Below, one piece after another: positions 14,941 to 18,305 of a stretch of 45,065 nt of DNA (position 1 is its first letter; each line of letters starts with the position of its first letter). Both the position numbers and the translations under genes were made by a program. The DNA comes from Nitrososphaerota archaeon. Its GTDB lineage: Archaea; Thermoproteota; Nitrososphaeria; Nitrososphaerales; Nitrosopumilaceae. The DNA is taken from positions 1 to 45,065 of the forward strand of contig JAGWFW010000007.1 in NCBI GenBank assembly GCA_028867735.1, in the 5' to 3' direction. The notes under the pieces are model-generated. The model worked only from the letters and a program-made list of their open reading frames with translations. It was not told where the DNA came from and ran no database searches.

Positions 14941-15568
14941 AAGGAAGTCAAGCTGAAACCCAAGTTTCCTGTTTGGTTCAATCAAGTGATATCATCATAC
15001 ATTACAGGATTTGCAAGGGCGCAGCTTTACAAATTTATAAAATATCATCAGTTGGAAAAATATGTGGTTGCCTTTGCAACTGATTCAATTGCGTGTAGGA
15101 AAAAGATTGCCGGACTGGATAGCAGAAAATTAGGTGAAATGAAACTAGACAAGGAAGACGTGACGTGTACTTTCTCTCAAATGGGTTTTACTTGTTTAAT
15201 GGGGTATGGAAGAACCGCGGGATTGGGTACGATGCTGAGAGAAAGGCCGAGATCGAGCACTTGGATACCAAGGTTGACGAAGACGGTAGCCTCTACATTA
15301 CCGTTAAAACTACGAAGACCACGCATATCAAGAGCGGAATTATCTACAACAAACTCGACAAAATAGGCAAGATCGAGGAATATGAGAAGAAAATTGGCTT
15401 GAATTCTGACAGAAAACGCCTTGGCTTTCTGATCTGAAATCCTTGAAGGAAAAGACATTTTGTGATTCTTCGCCCATTCCGATTGATATTGTAGGAGATA
15501 TCATATCAAAAAAGGAAATTGAATGGGCTGTGGATGATGAAGGGTATGAGCCTGAAAGTAATCTTTAA
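14941..15568 (+). pseudogene. C-terminal remnant of a virus/plasmid-type family B DNA polymerase
   Basis: Reading frames join across two breaks. The first part (frame of 14986) carries NQVISSYITGFARAQLYKF and the palm motif C equivalent VVAFATDSI. A tandem duplication of GACGT at 15157-15166 then shifts the frame; removing one copy restores KEDVYFLSNGFYLFNG in the frame of 15165, followed by the KNRG motif. A one-base loss near 15420 shifts it again, giving WLSDLKSLKEK and a stop at 15566-15568. Upstream of 14941 the frame has stops, and the exonuclease domain and motifs A and B are absent. Family assignment rests on motif order (helix, TDS, KxRG); a casposon, provirus or plasmid source cannot be told apart. 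Confidence 0.6.
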
Positions 15569-15604
15569 GGTCAAATCTTTTGTGAAATTGGTAATCGTAT
15601 CAAT

Positions 15605-15682
15605 GATAATATTTTTTGATAATATATTTAGATAATACATAAAGATTATATAATGAGATTATGTATACAGATTAATGAAATT
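15605..15682 (+). repeat. array of six 13-bp-period GATWAT repeats
   Basis: GAT occurs at 15605, 15618, 15631, 15644, 15657 and 15670, exactly 13 bases apart. The first three units begin GATAAT, the next two GATTAT and the last GATTA, which runs into the ATG at 15675. The remaining seven positions are almost all A/T. The array therefore covers the core promoter and start codon of the DGQHR gene. It could be an operator array or an AT-rich 13-mer unwinding element of a replicon; the pattern itself is directly visible. Confidence 0.8.
15635..15666 (+). promoter_or_regulatory. TATA box inside an operator-like dyad for the DGQHR gene
   Basis: The self-complementary TATA-like core ATTATATAAT (15645-15654) is flanked by inverted arms ATACATAA (15635-15642) and TTATGTAT (15659-15666). 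The core is centred about 25 bases before the ATG, which fits an archaeal TATA box for a leaderless transcript. The dyad suggests a dimeric repressor that would exclude TBP. Confidence 0.6.
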
Positions 15683-16733
15683 CAAAGCAATTCATTTTGT
15701 CCAGCACGAAACTGAGATGTATAATTGTGTCATCTCAGCAGGAGACTTGGTAAAGTCGGGTAAGGTCGATATCTGGAAACCAAATCATGAAGAAGGGTAT
15801 CAGAGGGAACCCGAACCAAGTAGAGCAAAAGCCTATAGCAGATACATATCTGCAGAGATTTCGCCTCCTGCCATACTAGCAAACATAAGAACTAGCGACA
15901 AGGAAAAAGTCAGATACAACAACGGATGGCTTGAGATTCCCGACGATGTACCTCTATGGTTAGAGGATGGGCAACATAGAGTGGGAGGCTTAAAGTTACT
16001 GATGGAATCTGCACCAGAAAAATTTGTGGATCTTCCAATACCCATAGTCATTACAATGGGCCTATCCGTATATGAGGAAGCAAAACAGTTCTTAGTTGTA
16101 AACAAAACACAGAAGAAAGTAAGAACAGATCTAGCAGAGAGATTTCTTCAAAAAGCAGAAAAAGAGGAAGGTGTGAAGAACTTGTACAACAGGGGGTTCC
16201 TTCGTGGAATAGAGTGGATCCCAACTGCTATAGCGATAGCAGATACTCTGAATAGAGACGATCACAGCACATGGCATGATAAGATAAGATTACCTAATGA
16301 ACCTAAAGGCGTGACTGTCGTAAATCAGAAATCGTTCACCGATTCTCTCAAACCTCTTGTGCATGCTGATGGAGTGCTTGCAGGAAAATCTCCCGCAGTA
16401 ATTGCATCAATCCTTAATCGCTATTGGGAAGCAATTCGCGAATTGAATCCAAAACCATTTGACGAACCAGAAAACTATGTAATTCAGACAACAACTGGAG
16501 TCTTTGTTCTACATTCTTTGATGACCAAAGTATGTATGAAAGTTGGTAAGGACGAACCACAAAAGAAAGACTTCCTCAATGTGTTAGGAAGAATAGAGTC
16601 TCTCAAAGACGAAGGTAAATGGAGTAAGAATGGAGAGTATGGCAATATGGCAGGACAGAAAGGTTTCAATCTGATAAAATGGGAACTGCAAAACGAATTG
16701 GAGTCAGCATATCAAAATGCTGTAGTCCAGTAA
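15675..16733 (+). CDS. DGQHR-domain protein (DndB-like)
   Basis: The 352-residue protein has the eponymous DGQHR motif at residues 98-102, preceded by the GYQREPEPSRAKAYSRYI block (41-58) and followed by FLVVNKTQKKVRTDLAERFL. These are the conserved blocks of the DGQHR/DndB family, which includes the regulator of DNA phosphorothioation operons and related ParB-like proteins in DNA-modification clusters. No dndA, C, D or E gene is present here. The next gene encodes a PD-(D/E)XK nuclease-like protein, so the pair looks like a defence or genome-maintenance module. A 13-bp repeat array overlaps the promoter. The ATG start fits a TATA box 25 bases upstream. Confidence 0.8.
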   Translation: MKFKAIHFVQHETEMYNCVISAGDLVKSGKVDIWKPNHEEGYQREPEPSRAKAYSRYISAEISPPAILANIRTSDKEKVRYNNGWLEIPDDVPLWLEDGQHRVGGLKLLMESAPEKFVDLPIPIVITMGLSVYEEAKQFLVVNKTQKKVRTDLAERFLQKAEKEEGVKNLYNRGFLRGIEWIPTAIAIADTLNRDDHSTWHDKIRLPNEPKGVTVVNQKSFTDSLKPLVHADGVLAGKSPAVIASILNRYWEAIRELNPKPFDEPENYVIQTTTGVFVLHSLMTKVCMKVGKDEPQKKDFLNVLGRIESLKDEGKWSKNGEYGNMAGQKGFNLIKWELQNELESAYQNAVVQ

Positions 16734-16988: not shown

Positions 16989-18305
16989 TTGACAAGAAAG
17001 GAAACAGTACAAATCAAGAAAACACAAGAAAAGAGAAAATTAGAGAAATGGTCAGAGATAGTATCAAAACTGAATCTTGATCTTACCAAAGGCGTGAATA
17101 GGGTTCAAAGTAAAGAAATCAAAGAGATAACAAATGAAGAACCGAGGCTAATGGCAAAGATAGATCAAGCAGAGGATTTGCCTTCAATCTTCAAGAAAAA
17201 TGGTGTGTTTATCTTGCCAGTTGATCGTCATTCATACGCGCTATTGCAAGGTAAAGGATATCATGCTCTAGAACCCATGGACTCTTCACCTGAAAAACAT
17301 CCTACTGAAAATCCATTTCCTACATCAGCTGAGGGAGTACAGAGTGAATCGGTTTACTTGGATTACGCATATGCGACTGGCCTTTTAGGACGTTTTTCAG
17401 GTGTCAAGAATCTATTTAGCGCATTCCGCGGAAGAAGGGCCACACCAGAGTTTGATTTTTCAGTTGGCAGAAATAATCTGACTGTCAATGGTGCGCAAAT
17501 AGAGATTGATGGTAGCTATGAAAATGTAGAACAGATTGTTCTGGTTGAAGCAAAACTTGGGACTCCTACGACATTCATCATACGCCAACTCTATTATCCC
17601 TATAGGACGTTACATTCAGATAAAAAATCCGTAAGAAACATTTTCTTCTGTTATGAACCAAAAGAACAGGCTTATCTCTTTTATGAATATGATTTTCGGT
17701 ATCCACTTCGTTATGATTCAATAAACTTTGTTAGAAATGGAAAATATAACATAGTTTACAAACCGTTAAAGATCAAGGAATACCAGCAGGTAAATCCTGA
17801 CACTGAAAAGATCCGCATTCCACAAGCTGATGACCTTGATAAAATTGTAGAAATACCTTTCAGAGTGGCAGAGGGAATAGACACAGCTGATAAGATGGCT
17901 ACATATTTTCAATTTGCCAAAAGACAGAGTTCGTACTATCGAGAGGCGGCAGAGATACTTGGGCTGGTAGAACTAAACAGAAATCACTACTCACTTACGG
18001 ATAAGGGCAAACAATACATTCAGTTACCTACTGAGGTTAGAATGAAATACTTTAGCAAACTACTTTTAGAATTTCCTGTAATAAACCAGATATTTCTTAA
18101 CCTTAGTGTAGAACGTAACAAGCCAGTTATCAGAAATGAGATAGTAGAAATCCTGAAGGAAAACTCAGATTTGACAGGTTCCACGCTATTCCGTAGGACA
18201 CAAACCATACTTGCATGGTTCAGATGGATTCAGCATAATGTTGGTCTCGTTGAGGTATCAAAAGATAGAGTATCTTTTTCTCGTCAAATGAAGTTGGAAT
18301 TCTAA
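16989..18305 (+). CDS. putative PD-(D/E)XK restriction-endonuclease-like protein with C-terminal winged helix
   Basis: The 438-residue protein has a basic N-terminal region, then a central domain with IEIDGSYE (D174) followed by VLVEAKLG (E187, K189) and a helix with RQLYYPYR (Q200). This spacing is that of a PD-(D/E)XK nuclease core. A C-terminal part (about residues 290-345) reads like a winged helix: DKMATYFQFAKRQSSYY, AAEILGLVEL, YSLTDKGKQYI. From memory, similar architectures are annotated as type II restriction enzymes. No cognate methyltransferase gene is in the window. The TTG start lies about 30 bases after a TTTATTAATA box. It follows the DGQHR gene after a 255-base gap. Confidence 0.65.
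   Translation: MTRKETVQIKKTQEKRKLEKWSEIVSKLNLDLTKGVNRVQSKEIKEITNEEPRLMAKIDQAEDLPSIFKKNGVFILPVDRHSYALLQGKGYHALEPMDSSPEKHPTENPFPTSAEGVQSESVYLDYAYATGLLGRFSGVKNLFSAFRGRRATPEFDFSVGRNNLTVNGAQIEIDGSYENVEQIVLVEAKLGTPTTFIIRQLYYPYRTLHSDKKSVRNIFFCYEPKEQAYLFYEYDFRYPLRYDSINFVRNGKYNIVYKPLKIKEYQQVNPDTEKIRIPQADDLDKIVEIPFRVAEGIDTADKMATYFQFAKRQSSYYREAAEILGLVELNRNHYSLTDKGKQYIQLPTEVRMKYFSKLLLEFPVINQIFLNLSVERNKPVIRNEIVEILKENSDLTGSTLFRRTQTILAWFRWIQHNVGLVEVSKDRVSFSRQMKLEF

What the first reader, a model, noticed from the sequence alone, without database searches (positions are those of the whole stretch)
15605..15682. Six 13-bp-phased GATWAT repeats covering the promoter and start codon of the DGQHR gene
GAT recurs at exactly 13-base steps (15605, 15618, 15631, 15644, 15657, 15670), and the last unit contains the ATG. 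Six exact periods are unlikely by chance even in AT-rich DNA. Two readings: an operator array for autoregulation (DndB-family proteins are known regulators of dnd operons), or an AT-rich 13-mer unwinding element of a former replicon, since a DNA polymerase remnant lies just upstream.
Basis: partly seen in the sequence, partly recalled or inferred. Interest (0 to 1): 0.75.

Follow-up and report, generated by a model that had tools for sequence, protein, structure and literature searches.

The report
Thirteen-base repeat switch at archaeal gene
Six short repeats spaced exactly 13 bases apart cover the promoter and start codon of a DNA-modification-linked gene in an archaeon; both close relatives of the gene have a similar array in the same place, so it is probably a control switch for that gene rather than chance or a replication origin.

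Summary
In detail: GAT recurs at 15605, 15618, 15631, 15644, 15657 and 15670, and the last unit holds the ATG at 15675. It is not chance: it is the only such array in the 45 kb window, unique in the 1.65 Mb assembly, and no shuffle reached its periodicity. In 250 genomes of the same family only two others carry the gene (53-54% identity). Both have a 13-bp GAT array at the same place, with diverged units (TGGATTTT, TGGATTNTTA) and a TATA-like unit about 26 bp before the start. The conserved upstream DNA begins at about -58, where the array begins. Best reading: an operator array that blocks the TATA box and start site. DGQHR (DndB-like) autoregulation is the leading candidate for the binder, unproven. 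The origin/DUE reading is not supported. Distant DGQHR genes (40% identity or less) lack the array. An unexpected result bears on the binder: many genomes of this family carry 13-bp-phased TGATTTTCA arrays at UspA, CBS, thermosome, Hsp20, PAC2 and related promoters, and upstream of a small winged-helix regulator. So 13-bp tandem sites are a wider regulatory habit here, and a host regulator with this binding mode is a serious rival.

The parts
15605..15617 (+). repeat unit 1, GATAATATTTTTT (-70 from ATG)
15618..15630 (+). repeat unit 2, GATAATATATTTA (-57)
15631..15643 (+). repeat unit 3, GATAATACATAAA (-44)
15644..15656 (+). repeat unit 4, GATTATATAATGA (-31); contains the TATA-like box
   Evidence: the equivalent unit in L009 (GTTTTTATACTTG) and L011 (GACTTTTATGCAT) is also the TATA-like one
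15646..15653 (+). TATA-like box TTATATAA, centre about 25 bp before ATG (inferred leaderless or short-leader promoter)
   Evidence: sequence; A+T peaks at -25 (0.84) over 169 gene starts of related genomes
15657..15669 (+). repeat unit 5, GATTATGTATACA (-18)
15670..15682 (+). repeat unit 6, GATTAATGAAATT (-5), containing the start codon; GATTAATG is identical in L011
15675..16733 (+). DGQHR / DndB-family protein, 352 aa; ParB/sulfiredoxin-like fold
   Evidence: PF14072 8e-18, TIGR03187 2e-29, AlphaFold pLDDT 89.5, best PDB fold hits Noc-DNA complex and pNOB8-like ParB
16989..18305 (+). putative Type II restriction enzyme (DUF6996-DUF6997-DUF7226), separate downstream gene about 255 bp away; neighbour, not shown to be controlled by the array
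   Evidence: Pfam; PADLOC REase_II 1.4e-45

Best explanation
The repeats are a cis-acting operator array for the DGQHR gene. A DNA-binding protein loads cooperatively on 5-6 tandem, same-orientation sites (13 bp each, core GATWWW), starting about 57-70 bp upstream. It covers the TATA-like box in unit 4 and the start site and codon in unit 6, so TBP/TFB cannot assemble and the gene is repressed until the protein is titrated or released. The most likely binder is the DGQHR protein itself (negative autoregulation, as for DndB). Shown: the array, its statistical reality, and conserved period, place and GAT core at all three close homologues. Inferred: that it binds protein, that it represses, and that the binder is DGQHR. 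I hold the operator role at about 0.8 and DGQHR as the binder at about 0.5.
For: All 3 genomes of 250 in the family that carry the gene also have the array: GATs in the best 13-bp phase are 6, 4 and 4, and no more than 2 at every other period from 8 to 20. Only 2 of 280 ORF starts reach 4 or more. Phase is kept relative to ATG: -5, -18, -31, -44, -57 in the window; -5, -18, -44, -57 in L011; one base off in L009. L009 and L011 proteins are 70% identical, and both are 53-54% identical to the window. Upstream DNA of L009 and L011 aligns from about -58, where the array starts, and not further upstream. The array is single-copy and only at this promoter in G000 and G610, and the best match in G623, as expected of a dedicated operator. 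Gene neighbourhoods differ: integrase, AbiE-like pair or REase. DGQHR is the only gene seen next to the array in all three. Precedent: Salmonella DndB binds its own promoter from -72 to +4 and represses it (PMC4507180). RptR represses an RM island through three 9-bp direct repeats over the -10 box (PMC12255303). Predicted fold is ParB/Noc-like, i.e. related to site-specific DNA binders.
Against: No binding, transcript or mutant data. DndB sites are palindromes, not 13-bp direct repeats. DGQHR homologues at 40% identity or less (L002, L004, L005, L007, L012) have no 13-bp array. L011's array is weak by plain autocorrelation (55/5000 shuffles at lag 13; 1430/5000 allowing any lag) and convincing only because GAT positions and phase match. 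Fold matches are low in TM-score (0.47 or less of target for Noc and pNOB8-like ParB), so a DNA-reading domain is not demonstrated. Three loci only, two from one genus. Other promoters in the family use 13-bp-phased TGATTTTCA sites without a DGQHR gene among the neighbours looked at.
Confidence: 0.5

Rival explanations
1. The array is an operator, but for a host (or other) winged-helix-type regulator of the kind that reads 13-bp-phased TGATWWTCA sites elsewhere in this archaeal family; the DGQHR gene is a target of that regulator or of a paralogue.
For: In 43 family genomes TGATWWTCA-gap-TGATWWT peaks at a spacing of 13 bp (70 of 150 listed matches; TGATTTTCA subset 36 of 50, other spacings 1-3), reversed-pattern control about 7 matches in all. 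These arrays lie at UspA, CBS, thermosome, Hsp20, PAC2, permease and P-II promoters. A 116-aa predicted winged-helix protein has such an array ending just before its own start codon in L094, L109 and L110, the same layout as DGQHR. Sharing 13 bp and a GAT core by coincidence is unlikely.
Against: Unit sequence differs: GATWWW without TCA here, against TGATTTTCA there; 5-6 units over TATA and ATG, against 2-3 units commonly 40-60 bp upstream of the start. G000 shows no 13-bp enrichment of TGATWWT pairs outside this array, and none was seen in 203 kb of G610. A shared host regulator would be expected to have more than one target of the same sequence.
Confidence: 0.3
2. AT-rich 13-mer unwinding element or iteron of a former replicon or provirus.
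For: AT-rich (19% GC) direct repeats; a DNA polymerase remnant at 14986-15366 matches viral polymerase families.
Against: Both homologous arrays sit at the same offset from the DGQHR start codon in different contexts; no replication gene was identified next to them. The conserved DNA stops at the array. As recalled, E. coli oriC 13-mers are not at an exact 13-bp pitch (not tested here).
Confidence: 0.04
3. A neutral 13-bp minisatellite produced by slippage in AT-rich DNA.
For: Units 1 and 2 are 92% identical; near-perfect 13-bp minisatellites exist in unrelated contigs (L071, L073).
Against: Presence in all three homologous promoters with period, orientation and start-codon phase kept but unit sequence diverged; neutral arrays at this protein divergence should be gone or shifted.
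Confidence: 0.06
4. A conserved promoter or mRNA-leader feature (BRE/TATA spacing, translation initiation) rather than an operator for a specific regulator.
For: Unit 4 is the TATA-like box and unit 6 holds ATG in register; A+T peaks at -25 at gene starts in general.
Against: The other gene starts examined in these genomes do not show the array, and it reaches to -57/-70, beyond the core promoter.
Confidence: 0.1

Closest known systems
DndB autoregulation of dndBCDE (Salmonella, PMC4507180)
   Same: DGQHR/DndB-family protein gene with a repetitive operator across about -72 to +4 of its own promoter (inferred here).
   Different: Salmonella sites are two TACGN10CGTA palindromes in front of a dnd operon; here 5-6 direct 13-bp repeats and no dndCDE genes seen.
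RptR operator of Type I RM defence islands (PMC12255303)
   Same: Short tandem direct repeats over the core promoter of a defence-linked gene.
   Different: 9-bp units with TAGCTA palindrome, small dedicated repressor, bacterial promoter.
Archaeal Lrp/Lrs14-type repeated sites (review PMC2995911)
   Same: Clusters of regularly spaced sites, negative autoregulation by blocking TBP/TFB (Lrs14).
   Different: Lrp sites are two or three helical turns apart on one face; 13 bp is about 1.24 turns.
13-bp-phased TGATTTTCA promoter arrays found here in the same archaeal family
   Same: 13-bp pitch, direct repeats, GATWWT core.
   Different: 2-3 units with TCA, commonly 40-60 bp upstream of UspA/CBS/chaperone genes; not over TATA and ATG.

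Membership tests
DGQHR/DndB protein family (PF14072/TIGR03187) | Profile match above curated cut-off and DGQHR motif | tested here: met
   65 bits vs 29.1 and 103 vs 58.85; DGQHR at residues 98-102
DndB of a dnd phosphorothioation system | DGQHR_dnd_1 equivalog score and dndCDE neighbours | tested here: not met
   35 bits vs 450; neighbours with Pfam matches are not dnd genes
DpdB (7-deazaguanine DNA modification) | NF041060 equivalog cut-off | tested here: not met
   50.8 vs 300 bits
DndB-type operator | TACGN10CGTA palindromes in own promoter | tested here: not met
   15560-15720 was read in full and has no such site
Operator array (functional class) | Conserved position and unit core at homologous promoters | tested here: met
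   3 of 3 close homologues
Operator array (functional class) | Protein binding and effect on transcription | not testable with these tools
   needs EMSA, footprint, reporter
13-bp TGATTTTCA promoter class of this archaeal family | TGATWWTCA consensus | tested here: not met
   no unit of the three DGQHR arrays has GATWWTCA
13-bp TGATTTTCA promoter class of this archaeal family | 13-bp direct-repeat pitch with GAT core | tested here: met
Replication origin DUE / iterons | Adjacent initiator gene and origin context | tested here: not met
   no initiator among the adjacent genes searched in the three loci; polymerase remnant only in the window

The most novel reading that the evidence does not exclude
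Archaea of this family use a 13-bp-pitch tandem-site code read by one family of DNA-binding proteins that assemble along DNA at about 1.24 turns per unit: TGATTTTCA triples on a stress/UspA-CBS-chaperone regulon, and GATWWW arrays on mobile DGQHR genes that have taken up the same binding mode.
Probability: 0.25. Interest if true: 0.75.

Novelty: new variant of a known kind. Interest (0 to 1): 0.55.

Why it matters
Gene regulation in ammonia-oxidising-type archaea is little mapped (general knowledge). A conserved, easily recognised operator array, tied to one mobile defence-like gene, gives a direct test of whether DGQHR proteins outside dnd systems are autoregulators. The wider 13-bp TGATTTTCA promoter class found while checking it offers a ready-made candidate regulon for a stress-gene island in these archaea.

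Tried and rejected
Viral relatives: three protein scans of viral contigs found none. The GATWAT x4 scan of viral contigs gave two tandem minisatellites and one hit with no nearby downstream ORF, read as background. A first array pattern was too strict and missed even the known arrays. Looser five-GAT matches elsewhere in the three genomes were examined and lie mostly inside coding regions. Phage and plasmid DGQHR genes (about 25% identity) mostly lie inside operons and were not used for the promoter comparison. The AT-rich subset printed was contaminated by N runs and is not used. Weak PDB sequence hits for the small winged-helix protein were treated as chance. Replication-origin and minisatellite readings were considered and set low (see rivals).

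Full report
Observation. Six GAT-led 13-mers run from 15605 to 15682 with the ATG at 15675 in the last. Lag-13 identity of the 70 bp before the ATG is 0.754; no dinucleotide shuffle in 5000 reached it at any lag, and one in 5000 contained any 3-mer six times at any period 7-21. It is the only such array in the window and, as GATWAT x3 at 13 bp with up to two mismatches, in the whole 1.65 Mb assembly. The finding is real.

The gene. 15675-16733 is a DGQHR/DndB-family protein but scores far below the dnd-specific and DpdB equivalog cut-offs. Its AlphaFold model (pLDDT 89.5) is ParB/sulfiredoxin-like; the only PDB hit below 0.001 is the Noc-DNA complex, followed by pNOB8-like ParB. TM-scores are low, so a DNA-reading domain is suggested, not shown. 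Downstream lies a putative Type II restriction enzyme; upstream a broken viral-type DNA polymerase.

Homologues. Of 250 genomes of the same family, three carry the gene: the window's, G623 (= L009/L010, record title Thaumarchaeota archaeon B12T1B11) and G610 (L011). All three have the array. L009: GATCACCAACTTG GATTTTTTACGTG GATTTTACACTAA GTTTTTATACTTG GATTTTATTACCT. L011: GATTTCTTACTTG GATTCTTAACAAG, then a TATA unit (GACTTTTATGCAT, one base out of register), GATTGTTATCTAA GATTAATG. In the best 13-bp phase there are 6, 4 and 4 GATs, and no more than 2 at every other period from 8 to 20; only two of 280 ORF starts in the comparison DNA reach 4. In a blind lag-13 scan of 301 kb the two top windows are the window's and L009's DGQHR promoters, and they rank first and second of 169 gene starts. 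The conserved upstream DNA between L009 and L011 begins at about -58, where the array begins. L011's array is weak on autocorrelation alone but shares phase and GATTAATG with the window. Distant homologues (40% identity or less) lack a 13-bp array; L005 instead has GATC-centred palindromes.

Anatomy and mechanism. In each promoter the unit about 31 bp before the start is TATA-like (TTATATAA; TTTTTATA; CTTTTATG). A+T peaks at -25 over gene starts in these genomes, so a leaderless or short-leader transcript is likely (inference). The array therefore runs from upstream of TATA to the start codon, which is where a repressor would block TBP/TFB. Units are direct repeats 13 bp apart, about 1.24 turns (from 10.5 bp per turn, general knowledge), so a protein binding each unit would wind around DNA rather than line one face. 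Archaeal Lrp sites, by contrast, are two or three turns apart (PMC2995911). Uniqueness in each genome and dissimilar neighbourhoods tie the array to the DGQHR gene itself. The closest experimental precedent is DndB repressing its own promoter through palindromes spanning -72 to +4 (PMC4507180); a direct-repeat defence operator is known for RptR (PMC12255303). I therefore favour autoregulation, at about 0.5.

What complicates it. A hunt for the pattern across 250 family genomes found recurrent 13-bp-phased sites at other genes. With a variable gap in 43 genomes, TGATWWTCA-TGATWWT pairs peak at 13 bp (70 of 150 listed; TGATTTTCA subset 36 of 50). They sit at promoters of UspA, CBS-domain, thermosome, Hsp20, PAC2, amino-acid permease and P-II genes, often as triples GATTWTC-N6-TGATTTTCA-N4-TGATATT; in six stress-gene regions 23 of 28 lay outside the ORFs called, commonly 40-60 bp before a start codon. 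In three genomes such an array ends just before the start codon of a small predicted winged-helix protein. I did not find this class in the literature searched, which is not proof of novelty. The DGQHR arrays share the 13-bp pitch and GAT core but not the TCA, unit number or position, and G000 shows no such enrichment elsewhere. A host regulator with this binding mode is thus a real rival (0.3).

Rejected readings. A replication element: no initiator identified, and the array follows the DGQHR start codon, not replication genes. A neutral minisatellite: period and phase are kept while units diverge.

Limits. The six stress-gene regions were picked because they held matches, so their counts describe the class and are not an unbiased sample; the unbiased evidence is the spacing peak.

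Noticed in passing
L181-L186, L089, L090, L095, L096, L099, L101-L107, L125, L126: Family-wide class of promoter arrays with 13-bp-phased TGATTTTCA/TGATWWTCA units at UspA, CBS, thermosome, Hsp20, PAC2, permease and P-II genes, strongly peaked at 13-bp spacing. Possibly an undescribed stress regulon.
   Followed up: partly
L094, L109:1040-1071, L110: 13-bp-phased GAT array ending just before the start codon of a 112-116 aa predicted winged-helix protein (a homologue in L140 is divergent from such an array); candidate regulator for the 13-bp class.
   Followed up: partly
output (e.g. G322:C16:14401, G037:C2:204224): A second, smaller peak at 11-bp spacing made of palindromic TGATNATCA-NN-TGATWAT sites, apparently another operator type.
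   Followed up: no
window 14986-15437: Frameshifted remnant of a viral or casposon-type DNA polymerase C-terminus (phrog_11768).
   Followed up: partly
window 16989-18305: Putative Type II restriction enzyme (DUF6996/6997/7226) next to DGQHR without a recognised methyltransferase among the adjacent genes searched; orphan or partnered elsewhere.
   Followed up: no
L005 about 1330-1400: Upstream of a distant archaeal DGQHR gene: GATC-centred palindromes (TTTGATCAAA, TTTAGATCTAAA) about 27-28 bp apart; possibly a different operator of the same gene family.
   Followed up: no
L059, L060, L061, L062: DGQHR genes on bacterial plasmids and phages sit next to a hypothetical protein, often beside methyltransferase or restriction genes, supporting a defence-linked role.
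   Followed up: no
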